Positions 8-14,128 of a DNA stretch of 34,663 nt are shown here, piece after piece; position 1 is the first letter of the stretch; the number at the start of each line of letters is the position of its first letter. The position numbers and the translations under genes were made by a program. The stretch is from a virus. The stretch is from the IMG/VR virus record IMGVR_UViG_3300025168_000296, positions 1 through 34,663 of that record, one strand, 5' to 3'. Under the pieces are notes generated by a model, which worked only from the letters and a program-made list of their open reading frames with translations, did no database searches and had not been told where the DNA came from.

Positions 8-355
8 ATGTCAAAGTCTACCAAGGCTGCAAGAGCAAGACACTTTGACAAAAAGAAGAAAGGGCCTGCTCCTGGCGATGCAACTGCAAAGACCAAAACT
101 TCTAAGTATACAAACAAATACAAACAGATGTATGGAGAAGAGAAACTTACAGGGTTAGTCAATAAAGCAGAGAAGACAGGAATATCATATGGTATTCTCA
201 AAAAAGTTTATGATAGAGGTTTGGCTGCATATAAGACAGGACACAGACCAGGCGCAACTTCTCAACAATGGGCATACGCAAGAGTGAATTCTTTTATTAC
301 AGGCGGTGGTGCAAGAAAATCGGACAATGATCTTTGGCAAAAGGCAAAGAAATGA
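8..355 (+). CDS. Conserved phage protein, DUF5824-like
   Basis: This 115-residue basic protein has a lysine-rich N-terminus (about residues 1-40) and a conserved C-terminal half containing VYDRGLAAYKTGHRPGATS and QWAYARVNSFITGG. From memory these match the DUF5824 family, which is widespread in T4-like marine phages and has no known function. The start at 8 is supported by AGGAGAT immediately upstream. Its stop overlaps the next start as ATGA, so the two genes are probably translationally coupled. The neighbours encode proteins with capsid-targeting-like N-termini, so a virion or head role is possible but not shown. The family call rests on recalled similarity. Confidence 0.75.
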   Translation: MSKSTKAARARHFDKKKKGPAPGDATAKTKTSKYTNKYKQMYGEEKLTGLVNKAEKTGISYGILKKVYDRGLAAYKTGHRPGATSQQWAYARVNSFITGGGARKSDNDLWQKAKK

Positions 356-567
356 AAACATTTTCACAGTATCTAGAAGAAGCAAATTCTAAGTATATTG
401 TTTCCATAAACCCTAACGATAAAAAATGGTATGTAATGGGTCTTGTGGGGAACAATAAATGGATGCCAGTTTCTAATGGATTTAAAAACAAAGCTCAGGC
501 TCAGAAGTGGGCAAAGAGTCAAGATAAGGTGGACATTGCTGCTCGTGGAGAAATAAGTGGTGCATAA
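352..567 (+). CDS. Small protein with capsid-targeting-like N-terminus
   Basis: The 71-residue product begins MKTFSQYLEEANSK. An upstream in-frame start exists at 334, but ATG 352 is preferred because it forms an ATGA overlap with the previous stop and because the MKTFxxYLxEA N-terminus recurs in neighbouring genes. In T4, internal head proteins carry a very similar N-terminal sequence (about MKTYQEFIAEA), which directs them into the prohead and is cut by gp21 after L/I-x-E. Here YLEE|A would be the cut site. The remainder (YIVSINPNDKKWYVMG, then FKNKAQAQKWAKSQ) looks like a small beta-alpha domain with no family I recognise. Packaging into the head is inferred. Confidence 0.7.
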   Translation: MKTFSQYLEEANSKYIVSINPNDKKWYVMGLVGNNKWMPVSNGFKNKAQAQKWAKSQDKVDIAARGEISGA

Positions 568-568
568 G

Positions 569-952
569 ATGAAAACGTTTAAACAATTCACAGAAGATGT
601 TTCTAAGAGTGACTTAGACCAAGTAGAGAAATATGCAGATAGGTTATTTGCGGCTGTGGGAATTGATATAGAGTTTACCAGACATTTCCTTGATAGAGTC
701 AATGATGAACGAAATAAGAAACCGATTACTTCTGCTGAACTCATTCGATTGTTTCGTTTGACTTACAAGAAATATGGTAAGAAAATTGCAAAGATGAATC
801 CAGATGCAGAAGCAGTCATAACTGACATGGAAACAGATGTTAATATGCCATTTGTTCTGAATCTTGATAGAAACAAAATGCTCGATCTTGTTGCAAAGAC
901 AGTTATGAGAAAAAAGAATTTTAAGACAAAAGATCAAAAGTTGGAAGTTTAA
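569..952 (+). CDS. Capsid-targeted-like protein of unknown function
   Basis: The product has 127 residues if it starts at ATG 569 (MKTFKQFTEDVSKS), one base after the previous stop codon. A GTG start at 557 is possible but would bury the recurring MKTFxxF motif. The leader ends FTED, a weaker match to the L/I-x-E protease consensus than its neighbours. The body carries a compact motif FTRHFLDRVNDERNKK with H39, R43 and R48, then a predicted helix (ELIRLFRLTYKKYGKK) and a beta-rich tail. The H-x3-R-x4-R arrangement loosely resembles small RNase-toxin folds such as DUF4258, but this is not a confident assignment. Confidence 0.65.
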   Translation: MKTFKQFTEDVSKSDLDQVEKYADRLFAAVGIDIEFTRHFLDRVNDERNKKPITSAELIRLFRLTYKKYGKKIAKMNPDAEAVITDMETDVNMPFVLNLDRNKMLDLVAKTVMRKKNFKTKDQKLEV

Positions 953-1991: not shown

Positions 1992-2510
1992 ATGAAAACT
2001 TTCAAAGACTATATTGTAGAATTTGACACACCAACCATCTATTGTGACATGGATGGAGTGATTGCTGATTTCATAACATTTACAAGAGAACATTTGGGAA
2101 AACCATTCAAGGATGAATACTGGACAGATCTTCCAGAAAATATGTTCTATTTGTTGCCACCTATGTCAGATGCACATCAACTTTGGAAGTTTATAGGAAA
2201 ATATAACCCCAATATTCTAACTGCTATACCAAGAAAATCGCCAGAAAGAGGTAATATTTCCGAAAGAGCTGCTGATGATAAGAAAAAGTGGGCGAAGAAA
2301 CACTTCAATGTTTCAGAAGATAGAATATATGCAGTATTACGAAAACACAAATCAAACTTTGCAAAAGATGGTAGAGATGGAAGACCAAACCTATTAATCG
2401 ATGACCATTCAAAGAATATAGCTGCATTCAAAAAAGCAGGAGGACTAGGAATAGTACATACTTCTGCAAGGAATACTATTAAAGAACTCAAGAAATTGGG
2501 ATACAAATAA
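1992..2510 (+). CDS. HAD-family 5'-(deoxy)nucleotidase-like enzyme with capsid-targeting-like leader
   Basis: The 172-residue protein begins MKTFKDYIVEFDTP and then enters a HAD fold. Motif I is YCDMDGVIADF with nucleophile D19 and D21, a motif II threonine is near T77, a motif III lysine is near K120, and LLIDDHSKN with D137/D138 is motif IV. The arrangement resembles cytosolic 5'(3')-deoxyribonucleotidases (NT5C type), which dephosphorylate nucleoside monophosphates; the substrate here is not shown. The leader ends YIVE|F, an I-x-E-like cut site, so the enzyme may be packaged in the head and injected. The leader could instead simply be the normal N-terminus. ATG 1992 is chosen over an upstream start because it follows the previous stop and restores the shared leader. 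Confidence 0.75.
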   Translation: MKTFKDYIVEFDTPTIYCDMDGVIADFITFTREHLGKPFKDEYWTDLPENMFYLLPPMSDAHQLWKFIGKYNPNILTAIPRKSPERGNISERAADDKKKWAKKHFNVSEDRIYAVLRKHKSNFAKDGRDGRPNLLIDDHSKNIAAFKKAGGLGIVHTSARNTIKELKKLGYK

Positions 2511-2525: not shown

Positions 2526-2678
2526 ATGAAAACTTTTATAGAATATCTCCAAGAACGTATGACTGATGCGGAACATGACGATTTAGAACGCAGAAAAGAG
2601 CGCCATAAACGTGCAGCAGACAGAAACAAAGAAAATTTAAAAACTCGCAAAGCAAGATATAAAGATTCGCCAGAATAA
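2526..2678 (+). CDS. 50-residue capsid-targeted-like basic peptide
   Basis: The product begins MKTFIEYLQERMTDAEHD and continues as a highly charged, lysine- and arginine-rich helix ending YKDSPE. YLQE|R fits the L-x-E prohead-protease pattern, which would release a basic peptide of about 40 residues, comparable to a small T4 internal protein. No Shine-Dalgarno sequence is visible before the ATG, which sits 5 bases after an exact late promoter. A DNA-binding or internal-head role is inferred from the leader and charge. Confidence 0.6.
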   Translation: MKTFIEYLQERMTDAEHDDLERRKERHKRAADRNKENLKTRKARYKDSPE

Positions 2679-2687
2679 GGAACTATT

Positions 2688-3737
2688 ATGATTAATACAC
2701 AAAGTATGCAGAAAATGGCCGATATCCTAAGAAAGATACGGAATCCTTCTCTAACAGAAGCAACTGGTGATAAAGAAGAATATCAACGAAAACGCAAAGA
2801 AGTTGCGAAAAAGTTTGGTGTTGAATCTTGTTCTGCATTGAAAGATGAGAAAGAACGAAAAGCGTGTTATAGCGCACTTGATGCTGCTCATGTTGCCGAC
2901 CATGAAGAACAAGTTCAGACAGAAGCAAAAGTGAAGCACGAATGTCCAAAATGTAATGGTGAAGGTTGTAAACATTGTGATGGAAGGGGATATCACCTAG
3001 AAGATGAGAGTGAAGATCCAGTAGGAAAAAACGAAGAAGTTAAAGAGGCGGTTCTTGTTGACAGAGATTACAAGTATGATGGAAAAGTAATTAAAATTTC
3101 CAAAAAGAATTTTAGTAAAGTTCATAGAGATTTCAAGAACCCTACTAAGGGCAAAGAAACGATGATAACTTATGACAGTAAAGAAGGAACAGTTTTAGTT
3201 CCAGTTGAGTTTACTGAAGAAGTTGAGATCGAAGAAGAATTTTGGGCAGTTATAGACAAAGCAAAAGGTGGTGAAGTAATGGCCGTAACAACTGATGAGA
3301 AGGGTGCTAAGTCCTCTGTCAAAATGTCTAACTTTTCAAAACATGATTATCATTTTGGAAAAGATCCAAGAACTCTGAAGATTGTTAAAGTTATGGGGAA
3401 GCACAGTCAGAAAAAGGCTGAGAAAATGATTGGATCGAAATTGTCCTTCAAAGAAGAAGTTGATATTGAAGAGGGCGGACTTTATGCTGCAAAAGAACCT
3501 GCATATCCACCAACAATAGACAATCTTAAAAAGATAGTAAAAGATAAACAAAATCTTATGTTCATGTTCAAAGATGGAAGAGCAAGAGTAGATTTGTTTT
3601 CTGCATCTGCAATGACTCAGGTATATGATGCACTAAAGAAACCAGACCATAAAAAACATTTTGAAAAGATGATAGGAACTAAAGTAGGATTCCTTCAAGC
3701 ACAAGGATTTGCGATGAAAATGATTGGAGGAAAGTAA
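2688..3737 (+). CDS. Modular head-cargo-like protein with DnaJ-type zinc motif
   Basis: This 349-residue lysine/glutamate-rich protein has an N-terminal helix ending PSLTE|A (E24). It carries a four-cysteine CxxCxGxGCxxCxG motif at C86, C89, C94 and C97, like one repeat of the DnaJ zinc domain. Several acidic spacers resemble prohead-protease sites: VEIEE near residue 183 and VDIEE|G near residue 262. The spacers separate compact beta-rich modules at roughly 120-175, 184-250 and 263-349. The start is supported by AAGGAA upstream. The same spacer type recurs in the next gene. Processing into several peptides inside the prohead is inferred; I do not recognise a named family. Confidence 0.7.
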   Translation: MINTQSMQKMADILRKIRNPSLTEATGDKEEYQRKRKEVAKKFGVESCSALKDEKERKACYSALDAAHVADHEEQVQTEAKVKHECPKCNGEGCKHCDGRGYHLEDESEDPVGKNEEVKEAVLVDRDYKYDGKVIKISKKNFSKVHRDFKNPTKGKETMITYDSKEGTVLVPVEFTEEVEIEEEFWAVIDKAKGGEVMAVTTDEKGAKSSVKMSNFSKHDYHFGKDPRTLKIVKVMGKHSQKKAEKMIGSKLSFKEEVDIEEGGLYAAKEPAYPPTIDNLKKIVKDKQNLMFMFKDGRARVDLFSASAMTQVYDALKKPDHKKHFEKMIGTKVGFLQAQGFAMKMIGGK

Positions 3738-3738
3738 A

Positions 3739-5628
3739 ATGGATAAAGAATTTGCAAAATTTATAGAAACAAAAGAAGTGGATGTTGAACAGGCATTTGT
3801 GGAAGAATTTGAACTTGAAGAAGATAAGGATAATGAAGCGGCGGAATTAATGAAGCGAAGATTTGATGATGCAGGAATAAAAATGAAATCAAAGGATGGA
3901 AAAATAGTTATTGCTAAAAAAGATAAGAAAAAAGCAATGGATGCACTAACCAGATCTTTCCCAGCAACTCCTGTTATGCGGAAAACTCTTGATAAATTTA
4001 TGGATAAACACACGGATAAATTTTTCACATTTGAAGAATTTGAACTTGGTGAAGCAAGCACTTACAGAGACAAAGCAAAAGATGAGAAGAAAAAGAAACA
4101 GTTTGTTTTCGGAGGAAAAAAGAAAAGTCGTCATGGTGAGTCTGGATATGGTAAAGGAGAAGAAGTAAAGGTTGATGAAGCAAATAACCCTCTTGCAAAA
4201 GTCAAGAGAATGTTGGATGAAAAATACGTAAATCAAGATAAGTTTTTCCCTACAGTATTGTTAGATGGACTTAAAAAAGCAATTCCTGGCGTGAAGTTGG
4301 TTCGACATTCAATCAAACATCCAAGATCTAGTGAAACAATACCTGGCCTCGGATTACAATTGTCTGGTGATAAGGGTGTCAGGATTATGGTTCAGTATGA
4401 AAAAGAAGATTCTCCCCCTTCAAAAAGTTTTAAGCCGGGAGAAAAGATTATCGATATAGATCCAGAAACAGGGAAAAAAGAAGTTACTGATACATCTATA
4501 GTAGGTGGATTTGCTGTATGGATTAATGATGTAGGAAAAATATGGAAACCAAATGAAACTAGGTGGATTCAAGCAAAAGATTTCAGAGATCCTAAAAAGG
4601 TTGTCCAATTTCTTAAAACCAAAGTTAAGAGAATGTTGAAAGCAGGATATATGTATTCTTCTTACAATAAGGAAGAAGTTGAACTTGATGAAAGTGCTAT
4701 GTTACAGGCTAAAATGGCATTAGGTGATGCAGACATAAAACACAAAGAACATAATGGAAAAATAATAATCAATAAGAAAGATAAGAAAAAAGCACAGGAT
4801 GTTTTAATTAAATCTTTTTCTAAAAAAGGAAAACCTCCAAAATTAACTATTGCATCTGGTTCTTTTCAAGAAGAAGTTGAACTTGATGAAGCAAAGAGTA
4901 AGCTCCCACCTCATCTTGCGAAGTTCTTTGATAAAGACGGAAATTTGAAAAAGGATGCCGCAGCACGTGTTGCAAAAGGTAGAGAAAAAATAAACTGGAT
5001 AGATGTAACCCCTAAAGGTTATGGGCCAAAAGAAGAAGGTATCGATATTGAAAAAGCAAGTATGGGAGCAGTCATAAAAGATTTCCAAGATTCCGATGCA
5101 CCACAATTCAAAGGTAAGTCAGACAAGAAACGCAAAGAAATGGCCATTGCCGCAAAACTTTCCAAAGAAGAAAAAGAAGAGGATGATCCAAAATCCAAAA
5201 AGAAAGACAAGTTAAACTTCAAACCCAAAATGGACGAGAAACAAATGAAAAAATATAAAGAACTCTTTGCTGGGTTACGAGAAAAACGTGCTCAAGAAAG
5301 AACACTTAAAAAGACTGTTTCAGACTATCACAAAGAAGAAGTCAAAGAAGCAGTTTTAGATAACGGACTTGAAGTCGGAGAACAGGATTGGGATGGACAT
5401 TATAGACATTCTCATGCATATCCAAATCTTAATGTCAACTTTGCGAAGTACATAGATGAAGGTTTAGAAGGCCCATATGAACTTAGTGGAGAAGTGTATT
5501 TTTATGATAGAAAAGTACATATGTTTTACTCCGTTTCAGGGGAAGATTATGTCGATGAAGAAACGGCAAAAGATATTGCCTATAGACTCCATAAAGACGG
5601 TGCTTACAAACCAGAATTGGGTCGTTAA
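3739..5628 (+). CDS. Large polyprotein-like virion protein with repeated L-x-E spacers
   Basis: The 629-residue protein starts at ATG 3739, which has GGAGGAAAG upstream; a TTG start at 3724 is less likely. Acidic spacers recur: EFELEE (26-28), EFELGE|A (103-105), EVKVDE|A (145-147), EVELDE|S (316-318), EVELDE|A (382-384) and EVKE|A (535-537). Most fit the (L/I)-x-E rule of T4 gp21. Between them are modules. Residues 45-74 and 331-360 are an internal repeat with 19 of 30 identical positions; 418-430 contain the NWIDVTPKGYGP motif seen in other marine phage proteins; 540-629 form a separate acidic alpha/beta domain. A packaged precursor cut into peptides is inferred. Confidence 0.7.
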   Translation: MDKEFAKFIETKEVDVEQAFVEEFELEEDKDNEAAELMKRRFDDAGIKMKSKDGKIVIAKKDKKKAMDALTRSFPATPVMRKTLDKFMDKHTDKFFTFEEFELGEASTYRDKAKDEKKKKQFVFGGKKKSRHGESGYGKGEEVKVDEANNPLAKVKRMLDEKYVNQDKFFPTVLLDGLKKAIPGVKLVRHSIKHPRSSETIPGLGLQLSGDKGVRIMVQYEKEDSPPSKSFKPGEKIIDIDPETGKKEVTDTSIVGGFAVWINDVGKIWKPNETRWIQAKDFRDPKKVVQFLKTKVKRMLKAGYMYSSYNKEEVELDESAMLQAKMALGDADIKHKEHNGKIIINKKDKKKAQDVLIKSFSKKGKPPKLTIASGSFQEEVELDEAKSKLPPHLAKFFDKDGNLKKDAAARVAKGREKINWIDVTPKGYGPKEEGIDIEKASMGAVIKDFQDSDAPQFKGKSDKKRKEMAIAAKLSKEEKEEDDPKSKKKDKLNFKPKMDEKQMKKYKELFAGLREKRAQERTLKKTVSDYHKEEVKEAVLDNGLEVGEQDWDGHYRHSHAYPNLNVNFAKYIDEGLEGPYELSGEVYFYDRKVHMFYSVSGEDYVDEETAKDIAYRLHKDGAYKPELGR

Positions 5629-9521: not shown

Positions 9522-10402
9522 TGGGCATAATTGCATCAATAGGAAACATATACTTTGTCTATCAGTTTTTGAAGAAACTGGTAACTCCTTTTGAGAAGAC
9601 AAAAGCATTTGAATTGGGTATTATTGATGAGAAGGGTAAGATTCTCAAGAGGCGAAGAGATTTAGATACAAAAGAAGAGAAAGAAGCATATAACCTTTCA
9701 GACACTTTGGTATGGAATCTCAAGAAGATTTTAGGGAAGATTCCTTTTGGAAAATCCAAACTTGCATCTTATGCGGCCGCACTCTGGTTGATTAAAGAAC
9801 AAGGAAATGGAAAAGTATTTGTAGATGAAAAGGAAATGGAAAAACAGTTCTTTGATTATTTTGAAAAAATTCAAAGTGATGAGTTGACTGAGAGTGTATA
9901 TGATAATGTTACCGATAAGGTAGTCATAGGTATTCTTCAAGCATATGATGAAGAACAAGTCAGTCATGCAAAGTTCCTCACACTTGCAAATGAATATACT
10001 GGTCTGACAAAGAAGTATATACAAGAAGAATTTCTCACAATTACTCTTCCTTTTGATGAAACAATCAATAAGGAATTTGAACAGTATCTAAACGAAGATA
10101 CTCCTGTGAGTAATGCAGGAAGTGGAAATGTTGCAATGAGAGGAATTCCATTGGGAGAACCGCCCAAAGGTGTGGTGATGAAACGATTTGCAGGAATGGA
10201 TGTATTTGCTGTAAATCCCTCTCTTTATCCTAAGGCCAACAACAAGAAAAAGAAGTATGATCGTTACAGTCGTTATGTTGGTGAGGATGATGCTGGGAAT
10301 TATATTAGAATGTTCGCAAGAAAATATCCAAAAAAACCCATTATCGTAATGGACTCTGTTACAGGATGTATGCAGTTTTTAAGACATGGATTTGGAAAAT
10401 GA
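9521..10402 (+). CDS. Conserved T4-like marine phage protein, unknown function
   Basis: The 293-residue protein starts with a hydrophobic segment (IIASIGNIYFVYQFLKKL) and continues TPFEKTKAFELGIID. A central GKSKLASYAAALWLIKE motif and a C-terminal block RYSRYVGEDDAGNYIRMF with KKPIIVMDSVTG follow. I recognise it as a conserved hypothetical of T4-like cyanophages. QYLNEDTPVSNAGSG near residue 190 looks like a flexible linker. It is coupled to the gene upstream and overlaps the one downstream as ATGA. A virion role is plausible but unproven. Confidence 0.6.
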   Translation: MGIIASIGNIYFVYQFLKKLVTPFEKTKAFELGIIDEKGKILKRRRDLDTKEEKEAYNLSDTLVWNLKKILGKIPFGKSKLASYAAALWLIKEQGNGKVFVDEKEMEKQFFDYFEKIQSDELTESVYDNVTDKVVIGILQAYDEEQVSHAKFLTLANEYTGLTKKYIQEEFLTITLPFDETINKEFEQYLNEDTPVSNAGSGNVAMRGIPLGEPPKGVVMKRFAGMDVFAVNPSLYPKANNKKKKYDRYSRYVGEDDAGNYIRMFARKYPKKPIIVMDSVTGCMQFLRHGFGK

Positions 10403-10692
10403 TGAAATTTAAAGAATATCTGCAAATCAACGCAGATGATTCTATCGAACAAGTTATGAATGGCGAGTGGATACTTAAATCAAGAACTACATGGAAAGCC
10501 ACAGATGATAAAGACAATACATTAGAGATACATAATGATGGTCATGATCCAGAATTAAAGGGAGAATCATGGTCGGTGCATAATAATACTTTTGCACCAA
10601 AAGCTTTTGCTTTTTTCTGTAAACAGTTCATAAAAGAAGCAAAACCATCAGAGGTAATTCATGTCAGAACAAGAATCTTTCCTACTACTTAA
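10399..10692 (+). CDS. Small protein with diverged capsid-targeting-like start
   Basis: The product begins MMKFKEYLQINADDSIEQ; ATG 10399 overlaps the previous stop as ATGA, and ATG 10402 is an equally possible start. MKFKEYLQ resembles the leader seen near 2 kb, but the expected glutamate is replaced (YLQIN), so protease cutting is doubtful. The body (EWILKSRTTWKATDDKDN, then FAPKAFAFFCKQFIKEAK) has no family I recognise. Its 3' end overlaps the next gene by 32 bases. Confidence 0.55.
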   Translation: MMKFKEYLQINADDSIEQVMNGEWILKSRTTWKATDDKDNTLEIHNDGHDPELKGESWSVHNNTFAPKAFAFFCKQFIKEAKPSEVIHVRTRIFPTT

Positions 10693-11071
10693 ATCAGAAA
10701 TACAAGCTTTAAAAATCAAAGATGAGTATCGAACAAAAGAGTTAGATGCTCTGATGAAGAAGTTAGATAATTCTACCAGCAAACTTAACGATTTGTCGGA
10801 GAATATTGGTAGATTGTTGACTGCTCAAGATGTCAACAAGACTAATGATAATGAATTTCGGGATGAGATGAAAATACTGCATACTCGCATAGGTGATCTT
10901 CAAGATAAAATGAATGTAATGATTGAGAAAACAGAAACCAGAATGAATACTGATGTGAATTTGATATATACAAAATTAGAATCTCTTGAACGTTGGAGAT
11001 GGATTACCATTGGTGCGGCCACTCTAGTTGCATGGTTATTGACACACGTTATTCCGAAAATAATACCATAA
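10661..11071 (+). CDS. Coiled-coil protein with C-terminal membrane anchor (XhlA-like)
   Basis: The 136-residue protein is a long predicted coiled coil (about residues 8-108) followed by one membrane segment (WITIGAATLVAWLLTHVI, about residues 113-131). This architecture matches the haemolysin XhlA family of phage lysis accessory proteins, but many membrane-tethered phage proteins share it. It is the last gene before a strong early promoter. A lysis or membrane-scaffold role is inferred. Confidence 0.6.
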   Translation: MSEQESFLLLKSEIQALKIKDEYRTKELDALMKKLDNSTSKLNDLSENIGRLLTAQDVNKTNDNEFRDEMKILHTRIGDLQDKMNVMIEKTETRMNTDVNLIYTKLESLERWRWITIGAATLVAWLLTHVIPKIIP

Positions 11072-11078
11072 AAATGTA

Positions 11079-11107
11079 TTGACATTTTCCTTTGAGTATG
11101 TTATAAT
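11079..11107 (+). promoter_or_regulatory. Sigma70-type early promoter (TTGACA-17-TATAAT)
   Basis: TTGACA at 11079-11084 and TATAAT at 11102-11107 are separated by exactly 17 bases, a perfect consensus. It drives the primase and ribonucleotide reductase genes. The predicted start (about 11114) leaves a leader of roughly 25 bases with no obvious Shine-Dalgarno sequence. Confidence 0.85.
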
Positions 11108-11138
11108 AACACTATAACACTCAAACTAGATTTATATT

Positions 11139-12161
11139 ATGCCATCATATATCGATACAAAGTACGTAAACTTACTTGCTTTGAGACTCCCTCTATTTAA
11201 ACGTAAGAATCAAGGATTGTACAATTTTCGTTGTCCTTTCTGTGGTGATTCTCAAAAGAGCAAAACCAAGGCTCGGGGATACTTTTATCAAAAACGAACA
11301 GATCTTTTTTATCGTTGTCACAATTGCGGCCAAAGTTCTACATTTTCCAATTTTCTTAAACAGTTTGATGGAGAAATGTACAAGGACTATTCTTTAGAGA
11401 GATATAAAGAAGGAATTACAGGAAAGGGGCAAAATACACCTGACCCCGAATTTCAAGTAGAGAAACCAAAGTTTCACACGAAGATTGATTTACCAAGAAT
11501 AAGTGATTTAGATGACAATCACTTTGCAAAAAAGTATTTGGTTAATCGAGCAATTCCTAGTCAGTTTTTGAATTACCTATATTATACAGAGGACTTTAAA
11601 GGTTTTGTTGAAAAAGTTGCAGAACGTGATTATGACCTCGCAAAAAAAGAACAAAGAATTGTCATTCCCTTCTATGACTCAGATAAAAAATTAATTGCAT
11701 TTCAAGGTAGAGCATTTACAAACTCTCTGCTTCGTTATATCACTATAAAGGTTTACGAAGATTCCTCAAAAATATTTGGACTAGATAGGTTAGATATAAC
11801 GAAACCCTTTTATATTGTAGAAGGGCCATTCGATTCTATGTTTCTTCCAAATTGTATTGCGATGGCAGGATCAGATGTTAATTTAAGTGATCAGTCTGAT
11901 ATTGTAAATGCAATGAATGAAGGAACAGGAACAATGATATTCGATAATGAACCTAGAAACAAAGAAATACTTTCTAGAATGAATAAGGTTATTGATAAAG
12001 GTTGGAAAATTTGTATCTGGCCAGATTCGGTTGCTTGTAAAGACATCAACGATATGATTCTTGCAAGTATCCAAGAATCAAGATTAATTGAAATAATAAA
12101 TAAAAACACGTACAAAAGTCTATTCGCAAAAACACAGCTCGCCCTATGGAGAAGAACATGA
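11139..12161 (+). CDS. 61: T4-type DNA primase (gp61)
   Basis: The 340-residue primase makes RNA primers for lagging-strand synthesis with the gp41 helicase. An N-terminal zinc-binding domain has CPFCGDS (C32, C35) and YRCHNCG (C60, C63). The TOPRIM catalytic core follows, with YIVEGPFDSMF carrying the conserved glutamate, then AMAGSDVN and the acidic CIWPDSVACKDINDM. This order and the 340-residue length match T4 gp61. It lies directly behind a consensus early promoter, and its stop overlaps the reductase start as ATGA. Confidence 0.9.
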   Translation: MPSYIDTKYVNLLALRLPLFKRKNQGLYNFRCPFCGDSQKSKTKARGYFYQKRTDLFYRCHNCGQSSTFSNFLKQFDGEMYKDYSLERYKEGITGKGQNTPDPEFQVEKPKFHTKIDLPRISDLDDNHFAKKYLVNRAIPSQFLNYLYYTEDFKGFVEKVAERDYDLAKKEQRIVIPFYDSDKKLIAFQGRAFTNSLLRYITIKVYEDSSKIFGLDRLDITKPFYIVEGPFDSMFLPNCIAMAGSDVNLSDQSDIVNAMNEGTGTMIFDNEPRNKEILSRMNKVIDKGWKICIWPDSVACKDINDMILASIQESRLIEIINKNTYKSLFAKTQLALWRRT

Positions 12162-14128
12162 ATTCAAAAGATCCCATCACCCTGCCCACACAATACCAAC
12201 AATTCATACATTTATCACGTTATGCACGATGGGATTACGATAAAAAACGAAGAGAAACATGGGGAGAAACAGTTAATAGATTTTTTGGGTTTTTTCAAGA
12301 ACATCTTAAAGAGATGTGTAATTATGATTTGGACAATGGTATTTTAGAAGAATTGAAAAATGAAGTATTGTCGTTGAATGTAATGCCTTCTATGCGATGT
12401 TTGATGACTGCTGGAGATGCACTCCGCAAAGAAAATATTGCAGGGTACAATTGTTCTTATGTTAAAGTTGACACTCCACGTTCTTTCGATGAAATCCTTT
12501 ATGTTCTTATGAATGGAACAGGAGTGGGATTTAGTGTAGAAACAGAACACGTAAATCATCTTCCAGTAATTGCAGAAGAATTTCATCCAACTGACACAAC
12601 AATAGTTGTTGCAGATTCTAAACTTGGATGGGCAAAGGCATTCAAAGAATTGTTAAGTCTATTGTGGAGTGGCCAAGTTCCGAAATGGGATTTATCTAAA
12701 GTTAGAGAAGCAGGGAAACCTCTGAAGACATTTGGAGGTAGAGCATCGGGGCCAGAACCACTTGATGATTTATTTCATTTTTCAACTAAGATATTTCGAG
12801 ATGCAGCAGGAAGAAAACTCAAATCTATCGAATGTCATGATATTGTTTGTAAAATTGCTGAAATTGTTGTGGTTGGTGGTGTTCGTAGAAGCGCTCTTAT
12901 TAGCCTTTCTGATTTAAACGATGGAGAGATGAGACACGCAAAATCGGGTCAATGGTGGGAACACAATGTCCAGAGAGCACTTGCAAATAATTCAGTTAAT
13001 TACAAAGAAAAACCAGATACAGGAACTTTTATGAGAGAATGGTTATCTCTCTATGATTCCAAATCGGGTGAAAGAGGAATTTACAATGGAATGTCAGCAA
13101 AAAATCAAGTAGCATCATTAAACGAGAGGGAAAAAGATGGAAATGGAAAATATGTCACAAGAAGAGATCCTAGAGATGATTTCGGAACTAACCCCTGTAG
13201 CGAGATTATACTTAGAAGTAGAGAGTTCTGCAACCTTAGTGAGTGCGTTGTCAGAAGACATGACAGTATTGAATCTCTTAAAAAGAAAGTCAGAACTGCA
13301 ACAATCCTTGGCACTTTCCAATCCACTCTTACCAATTTTAGATACCTTACCAAAGAGTGGGAAAAAAATTGTACTGAAGAAAGGTTGTTGGGTGTCTCAC
13401 TTACCGGCATTTTAGATAATCCTTTAACAAATGGTAAGAAAAAAGGATTAGAAACTCTATTAGAAGATTTAAGAAAGGTTGCGTATGAAACAAACAAAGA
13501 ATGGGCAGACAAACTCGGAATCGAACGAGCAGCTGCAATCACTTGTGTCAAACCATCTGGTACTGTTAGTCAGCTTGTTGATAGTGCTTCTGGTATTCAT
13601 GCCAGGCATAATCCTTATTATATCAGAACTGTAAGAGCGGACAATAAAGACCCTCTTTGCAAATTCATGAAGGAGAAGGGATTTCCAAATGAACCCGATG
13701 TAACAAAACCAAAACATACAACTGTGTTCTCTTTTCCAATGAAAGGGCCAGACCAAGCAGTCTATCGACAAGATATGTCAGCGATAGACCAATTGAAACT
13801 ATGGATGACTTATCAGACTTATTGGTGTGAACATAAACCATCTGTCACTATTACTGTCAAAGAAGAAGAGTGGCCAAAAGTTGGTTCGTGGGTATGGGAA
13901 AACTTTGATTCTATTAGTGGAATTTCTTTCTTGCCTTTTAGTGAACATACATACAGACAGGCACCTTATCAAGACTGTACAAAAGAGGAATACAACAATG
14001 TATTGAAAACAATTCCTCAAGATGTAGATTGGAAGGATTTATCACAATATGAAGAAGTGGATTATACAGTCGCATCACAAGAACTAGCTTGTTCCGCAGA
14101 TGGTGGTTGTGAAATAGTAGACCTTTAA
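12158..14128 (+). CDS. nrdJ: Class II (B12-dependent) ribonucleotide reductase
   Basis: The enzyme reduces ribonucleotides to deoxyribonucleotides using adenosylcobalamin. ATG 12158 is preferred because GGAGAA lies 5 bases upstream and it overlaps the primase stop; a start at 12146 is possible. The 656-residue length, shorter than the roughly 740 of Lactobacillus RTPR, is that of a compact monomeric class II enzyme. Key residues from ATG 12158 are C99 in YNCSY, the thiyl cysteine C347 and E349 in NPCSEI, and C358 in REFCNLSE. The 11-residue spacing C347-C358 equals that in RTPR. A C-terminal redox pair is in ACSADGGCE. T4 itself uses class I NrdAB, so this is a marine-phage trait. Confidence 0.9.
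   Translation: MNSKDPITLPTQYQQFIHLSRYARWDYDKKRRETWGETVNRFFGFFQEHLKEMCNYDLDNGILEELKNEVLSLNVMPSMRCLMTAGDALRKENIAGYNCSYVKVDTPRSFDEILYVLMNGTGVGFSVETEHVNHLPVIAEEFHPTDTTIVVADSKLGWAKAFKELLSLLWSGQVPKWDLSKVREAGKPLKTFGGRASGPEPLDDLFHFSTKIFRDAAGRKLKSIECHDIVCKIAEIVVVGGVRRSALISLSDLNDGEMRHAKSGQWWEHNVQRALANNSVNYKEKPDTGTFMREWLSLYDSKSGERGIYNGMSAKNQVASLNEREKDGNGKYVTRRDPRDDFGTNPCSEIILRSREFCNLSECVVRRHDSIESLKKKVRTATILGTFQSTLTNFRYLTKEWEKNCTEERLLGVSLTGILDNPLTNGKKKGLETLLEDLRKVAYETNKEWADKLGIERAAAITCVKPSGTVSQLVDSASGIHARHNPYYIRTVRADNKDPLCKFMKEKGFPNEPDVTKPKHTTVFSFPMKGPDQAVYRQDMSAIDQLKLWMTYQTYWCEHKPSVTITVKEEEWPKVGSWVWENFDSISGISFLPFSEHTYRQAPYQDCTKEEYNNVLKTIPQDVDWKDLSQYEEVDYTVASQELACSADGGCEIVDL

What the first reader, a model, noticed from the sequence alone, without database searches (positions are those of the whole stretch)
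1992..2510. A nucleotidase that may be packaged and injected
A HAD enzyme with YCDMDGVIADF and LLIDDHSKN motifs carries the same leader as the internal-protein-like genes, with YIVE|F before the catalytic domain. An injected 5'-nucleotidase could alter host nucleotide pools before phage transcription begins, or act on a nucleotide signal such as one used in anti-phage defence.
Basis: partly seen in the sequence, partly recalled or inferred. Interest (0 to 1): 0.7.

Follow-up and report, generated by a model that had tools for sequence, protein, structure and literature searches.

The report
Capsid-targeted nucleotidase in marine T4-like phages
This phage gene encodes a phosphate-removing enzyme of the deoxynucleotidase family that carries the short, cleavable tag T4-like phages use to load proteins into their heads, so it is probably shipped inside the virus and injected into the host, though what it does there has not been tested.

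Summary
Window 1992-2510 encodes a 172-aa HAD enzyme of the NT5C (5'(3')-deoxyribonucleotidase) family, preceded by MKTFKDYIVE|F. This leader matches the T4 internal-protein capsid-targeting sequence (ipII/ipIII MKTYQEFIAE|A) at positions 4, 7, 8 and 10, which T4 genetics assigns to targeting and processing. In the window and ~88 related marine contigs the motif starts 112 unique ORFs, all on the cluster strand (0.65 expected), in about 34 families.

Packaging has indirect experimental support. In cyanophage S-CREM2 the ATG-start motif occurs on three genes, all published MS-detected virion proteins; S-SM1's virion cytidylyltransferase also carries it. The nucleotidase itself has no proteomics.

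The leader is disordered in the model. In seven contigs the nucleotidase is fused behind a leader-bearing kinase, always with [LI]xE|FD at the junction. Seven of ten relatives tested carry a gp21-type protease. Homologues in other phages lack the leader.

Packaging and trimming are likely, ejection plausible, substrate and role open. New variant of a known kind.

The parts
1992..2021 (+). Leader MKTFKDYIVE: predicted capsid-targeting sequence, predicted cleavage after Glu10
   Evidence: Matches T4 ipII/ipIII leaders; motif statistics; mean pLDDT 48
2022..2507 (+). Mature part, residues 11-172: NT5C-type HAD phosphatase
   Evidence: Pfam and PHROGs, PDB profile, fold
2046..2072 (+). HAD motif I, DMDGVIADF, with nucleophile Asp19 and Asp21
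   Evidence: D19, M20, D21, V23, D26 invariant in 30 homologues
2349..2351 (+). Invariant Lys120, probable HAD motif III
   Evidence: Invariant in 30 homologues
2391..2417 (+). HAD motif IV, LLIDDHSKN, with Asp137 and Asp138
   Evidence: Invariant in 30 homologues
352..567 (+). Neighbouring gene with the same leader, MKTFSQYLEE|A
   Evidence: Strict motif
569..952 (+). Neighbouring gene with an Asp10 leader, MKTFKQFTED
   Evidence: Sequence; Asp10 blocks processing but not targeting in T4 IPIII (PMC9026906)
1769..1990 (+). Neighbouring gene with the same leader, MKKFKEYLGE|A; body matches a major-head-protein PHROG
   Evidence: Strict motif; phrog_696 E 5e-11
2526..2678 (+). Neighbouring gene with the same leader, MKTFIEYLQE|R
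   Evidence: Strict motif

Best explanation
The gene encodes a virion cargo enzyme. Its first ten residues act as a T4-type capsid-targeting sequence: aromatic residues 4 and 7 bring it into the prohead core, and the gp21-type prohead protease cuts after Glu10 (I-V-E|F), leaving a 162-residue NT5C-type HAD phosphatase in the head. The enzyme is ejected with the DNA and removes phosphate from nucleotides or nucleic-acid ends before phage genes are expressed. Shown here: enzyme family, intact catalytic motifs, the leader and its use by many unrelated genes, the protease in most relatives tested. Shown in published work on other proteins: the T4 CTS mechanism, and virion presence of leader-bearing proteins in two cyanophages. 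Inferred: packaging of this protein (about 0.85), cleavage (0.8), ejection (0.75), substrate class and early role. I rate nucleotide-pool and end-healing roles about equally.
For: Leader matches the T4 CTS at the mapped positions; 112 against 0.65 expected, one strand only; enrichment at positions 4, 7, 8 and 10 over 55 families chosen only by an MK start and ribosome-binding site; motif hits only ipII, ipIII and gp61.1 in T4. S-CREM2: 3 of 3 ATG-start leader genes are MS-detected virion proteins (p about 0.013), and a fourth with a GTG start too; S-SM1 T4-GC190 likewise. Seven fusions keep [LI]xE|FD, in a segment modelled as disordered. gp21 family in 7 of 10 relatives. NT5C fold Z 13-15.
Against: No proteomics of this protein or of any homologue. 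About a fifth of homologues have a short leader (MKTLLE|F, MKLTE|F) that keeps the cut site but not the 4/7 spacing. HTVC008M has no strict leader and Melnitz's nucleotidase N-terminus diverges. The window holds no gp21 gene of its own. Virion counts are small and co-purification cannot be excluded.
Confidence: 0.72

Rival explanations
1. Packaged end-healing enzyme: the HAD domain removes 3' phosphates from broken RNA or DNA ends while the co-packaged kinase phosphorylates 5'-OH ends, a virion-delivered analogue of T4 Pnkp that counters tRNA- or DNA-cutting defences.
For: Fused to, or next to, a leader-bearing P-loop kinase in several contigs; kinase fold closest to C. thermocellum polynucleotide kinase (Z 16.2) and PSTK (16.0), and T4 Pnkp aligns over both domains in the same order; a leader-bearing tRNA nucleotidyltransferase-like protein occurs in the same cluster.
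Against: The HAD domain is NT5C-type; the polynucleotide-kinase PHROG match is weak (E 0.045). Kinase rows within 1 Z are tied and adenylate kinases and zeta toxin follow closely. The window itself shows no kinase; its cluster is cut at base 1.
Confidence: 0.3
2. Packaged nucleotide-pool enzyme: it dephosphorylates (d)NMPs of the host at the moment of entry.
For: NT5C profile and structures; a leaderless homologue in Cr30 lies beside ribonucleotide reductase and dCMP deaminase.
Against: A few hundred packaged copies would act on a large host pool; no reason is known why this must precede transcription; a nucleotide-kinase partner would undo it (inference).
Confidence: 0.3
3. Packaged anti-defence phosphatase that destroys a nucleotide alarm signal.
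For: Known CTS cargo is counter-defence: IPI inhibits a restriction enzyme (PMC3012670) and IPIII is needed on a wild E. coli strain (PMC9391042).
Against: NT5C enzymes act on phosphomonoesters, whereas most known alarm nucleotides are cyclic or diphosphate-linked (established knowledge). No defence link was seen in the contexts read.
Confidence: 0.12
4. Not packaged: the leader is a common N-terminus in this lineage and the enzyme works late in the cell, recycling nucleotides.
For: Short-leader forms and leaderless homologues exist.
Against: The leader fits the mapped T4 CTS positions and predicted virion proteins correctly in S-CREM2 and S-SM1.
Confidence: 0.13

Closest known systems
T4 internal proteins IPI, IPII, IPIII
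   Same: Ten-residue N-terminal leader with aromatic 4 and 7, L/I at 8, E at 10; gp21-type protease in relatives
   Different: Cargo is a recognisable enzyme; leader is on about 34 families; some cargo is fused in tandem. Packaging not yet shown for this protein
T4 Alt, packaged ADP-ribosyltransferase
   Same: An enzyme carried in the head and ejected (PMC9026906)
   Different: Different enzyme; Alt is not hit by the motif in T4
Cyanophage virion cytidylyltransferase (S-SM1 T4-GC190, S-CREM2 gp154)
   Same: Same leader and T4-like relatives; detected in virions; family neighbours the nucleotidase in HTVC008M and Melnitz
   Different: Different enzyme family; no NT5C hit was found in cyanophages
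5'(3')-deoxyribonucleotidases, NT5C (human mdN/cdN, S. epidermidis 3bwv)
   Same: Fold and all catalytic motifs
   Different: Capsid-targeting leader; substrate unknown
T4 Pnkp
   Same: In fused relatives, N-terminal P-loop kinase and C-terminal HAD domain in one chain
   Different: NT5C-type HAD, apparent protease site between the domains; stand-alone in the window

Membership tests
NT5C 5'(3')-deoxyribonucleotidase family | Profile match above the curated cut-off | tested here: met
   PF06941 27.4 bits against 24.8
NT5C 5'(3')-deoxyribonucleotidase family | HAD motifs DxDxV and LIDD with a conserved Lys | tested here: met
   Invariant in 30 homologues
NT5C 5'(3')-deoxyribonucleotidase family | Same fold as solved deoxyribonucleotidases | tested here: met
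   Z 15.3 and 13.3-14.1, above other HADs apart from 3cnh at 13.1
NT5C 5'(3')-deoxyribonucleotidase family | Hydrolysis of (deoxy)nucleoside monophosphates | not testable with these tools
   Needs enzyme assay
T4 CTS-bearing internal proteins | N-terminal ten-residue CTS with the mapped positions 4, 7, 8 and 10 | tested here: met
T4 CTS-bearing internal proteins | A gp21-family protease in the same phage | tested here: inconclusive
   Not in this fragment; present in 7 of 10 relatives
T4 CTS-bearing internal proteins | Presence in the virion, trimmed after Glu10 | not testable with these tools
   Only other leader-bearing proteins are covered by published MS
T4 CTS-bearing internal proteins | Ejection into the host | not testable with these tools
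   Needs infection experiment
T4 Pnkp (kinase-phosphatase) | Kinase and HAD phosphatase in one chain | tested here: not met
   Stand-alone in the window; fused in seven related contigs only
T4 Pnkp (kinase-phosphatase) | HAD domain closest to the Pnkp phosphatase | tested here: inconclusive
   NT5C structures rank first; Pnkp is not among the rows shown for the HAD alone

The most novel reading that the evidence does not exclude
Marine T4-like phages carry a virion-delivered nucleic-acid end-healing kit: a leader-bearing polynucleotide-kinase-like kinase, this HAD phosphatase and a tRNA nucleotidyltransferase-like protein, made in some phages as fusions cut by the prohead protease, and injected to repair defence-cut tRNA or DNA before transcription starts.
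Probability: 0.2. Interest if true: 0.85.

Novelty: new variant of a known kind. Interest (0 to 1): 0.62.

Why it matters
T4's capsid-targeting sequence is known from a handful of coliphage proteins, few with known functions. The same motif marks about 34 protein families in uncultured marine relatives and correctly points to proteins already found in cyanophage virions, so it could be used to predict injected cargo in marine T4-like genomes. A nucleotidase cargo, sometimes fused to a kinase through an apparent protease site, makes the question of what these phages deliver before gene expression directly testable. In the held library I found no paper that applies the CTS to marine phages beyond T4 reviews; most subscription literature is not held.

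Tried and rejected
Chance leader: rejected. DNA-level repeat: rejected, codons differ. Polynucleotide-kinase phosphatase as the HAD's own family: weak match (E 0.045) against NT5C (6e-26). NCBIfam gave nothing for the window protein. DUF6267 as a packaged ligase: no PDB sequence match and no literature, left open. Two leader-bearing families without Pfam or PHROG hits (L063, L062) looked ADP-ribosyltransferase-like by eye only and were not pursued. Paper searches found no injected phage nucleotidase. The strict motif does not occur in HTVC008M, so it says nothing about that phage. Several phage homologues have long branches and cannot be placed reliably.

Full report
The window is a 34,663-bp IMG/VR record of a T4-like phage. 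The gene order around the nucleotidase, running on to DNA primase and ribonucleotide reductase, matches HTVC008M and Melnitz. Gene 1992-2510 encodes a 172-aa protein with intact HAD motifs. Profiles assign it to NT5C. The nearest solved structures by profile are human 5'(3')-deoxyribonucleotidases. The AlphaFold model (mean pLDDT 92.6) is closest to deoxyribonucleotidases (3bwv Z 15.3; human and mouse enzymes Z 13.3-14.1). The first ten residues have mean pLDDT 48 and lie outside the fold.

The leader. T4 ipII and ipIII begin MKTYQEFIAE|A and ipI begins MKTFKEFT. According to PMC9026906, ten residues of IPIII suffice for packaging, residues 4 and 7 serve targeting, residues 8 and 10 serve processing, and Asp10 blocks processing but not targeting. 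I wrote the motif M[KR]x[FYLI]xx[FYHL][LIVMT]xE after seeing the window and T4 leaders. In the window plus ~88 marine loci it matches 112 unique + strand starts and none on the - strand; shuffling predicts 0.65; shifting the hydrophobic positions gives 0-2; replacing Glu10 gives 1 (Q), 5 (D) or 3 (K); position 8 is L or I in 103 of 112. Glu at position 9 or 11 gives 15 and 26, including leaders of slightly different length. Strict and looser matches together form about 34 families. Conditioning only on an MK start and a ribosome-binding site, 55 families show enrichment of F4 (10.5-fold), F/Y/H7 (3.7-4.9), L8 (2.2) and E10 (3.4). In T4 the motif hits only ipII, ipIII and gp61.1. Codons for the shared residues differ between genes.

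Independent check on virions. S-CREM2 was scanned after the motif was fixed. Its ATG-start matches are gp6 (SAM hydrolase), gp13 and gp154 (cytidylyltransferase), all three in the published virion proteome of 52 proteins (PMC10665884; hypergeometric p about 0.013). Allowing GTG starts adds gp14, also virion-detected (p about 0.003), but that extension was post hoc. In S-SM1 the cytidylyltransferase T4-GC190, reported in purified virions (PMC3037559), begins MKKFSAFLNE|A. With GTG and TTG starts allowed, the 60 kb of S-SM1 scanned also gave two short, unannotated - strand frames inside genes, taken as chance. The cytidylyltransferase family shares the gene cluster with the nucleotidase in HTVC008M and Melnitz, and leader-bearing copies occur in related contigs.

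Cleavage site. In L040, L044-L048 and L050 the nucleotidase is fused in frame behind a P-loop kinase with its own leader. The junction reads ITE|FD, LDE|FD, LKE|FD or LNE|FD. On the tree the fused label needs three changes, but fully supported branches force only one, so several origins are likely rather than proven. Across kinase copies with different upstream sequence the domain is preceded by [LIM]xE in 11 of 11, and another domain (EYQGK) has Glu within two residues upstream in 14 of 14 (counted by eye). In the fusion model the leader (1-12) and the junction (224-234, cut predicted after residue 233) have pLDDT below 50, while most of both domains is above 75. A gp21-family protease (PF03420) is present in 7 of 10 relatives tested; the three without are records of 24-44 kb.

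Homologues. My script labelled 46 of 92 sequences leader-bearing, 19 short (MKTLLE|F or MKLTE|F), 7 fused and 20 other or none; L043, L067, L078 and L082 fell in the last group only through regex limits. Homologues in Cr30, phiM12, Atu_ph07, Phosso, phiXF1, RAS14 and Atu_ph04 start at or just before the catalytic strand, and that of phiM5 follows another domain. Cr30's lies beside ribonucleotide reductase and dCMP deaminase. HTVC008M and Melnitz have divergent N-termini. Short leaders keep the cut site but lose the 4/7 spacing, so packaging is less certain for those.

Function. The kinase partner is closest in fold to C. thermocellum polynucleotide kinase (Z 16.2) and PSTK (16.0), followed by adenylate kinases and, at 13.6, zeta toxin; T4 Pnkp aligns over both domains in the same order. 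By profile it matches Zeta_toxin and AAA_33 and, more weakly, a polynucleotide-kinase PHROG. This does not fix the substrate. Nucleotide-pool, end-healing and signal-nucleotide roles all remain possible. T4 precedent favours early counter-defence for CTS cargo in general (PMC3012670; PMC9391042).

Limits. There are no virion data for this protein, the window lacks its own head genes, the virion counts are small, and the chance statistics on the marine loci are partly post hoc.

Noticed in passing
window 2688-3737 and 3724-5628 (+): Two long acidic proteins contain repeated EEVELDEA-type motifs between short segments, which look like gp21-type sites in a polyprotein.
   Followed up: no
window 569-952 (+): Leader with Asp at position 10 (MKTFKQFTED), the change that in T4 IPIII blocks processing but still allows targeting.
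   Followed up: no
L119:3837-5081, 10310-10546, 10579-12846 (-): S-CREM2 virion proteins gp6 (SAM hydrolase), gp13 and gp14 (APH-like kinase) carry the leader; gp12, annotated as a Cas9-like endonuclease and also virion-detected, has LRFASFMAE|A near its N-terminus.
   Followed up: partly
L111:18966-19130 (-): T4 gp61.1, a 54-aa protein of unknown function, begins MKTFKEFIKE|D and may be an overlooked internal protein.
   Followed up: no
L045:2440-4080 (+): Leader-bearing protein (MRKFKNYIIE|S) with poly(A)-polymerase/tRNA nucleotidyltransferase domains (PF01743, phrog_2244).
   Followed up: partly
L037:172-1398 (+): Leader-bearing DUF6267 protein with a KWDG motif that resembles nucleotidyltransferase or ligase active sites by eye; no PDB sequence match.
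   Followed up: partly
L014:7974-9005 (+): A leaderless NT5C homologue is fused to a domain with a Nudix-like box (by eye).
   Followed up: no
L054:6231-7369 (+) and L009:6280-7367 (+): Genes resembling iron-sulphur cluster assembly proteins (by eye) lie among the leader-bearing genes upstream of the nucleotidase.
   Followed up: no
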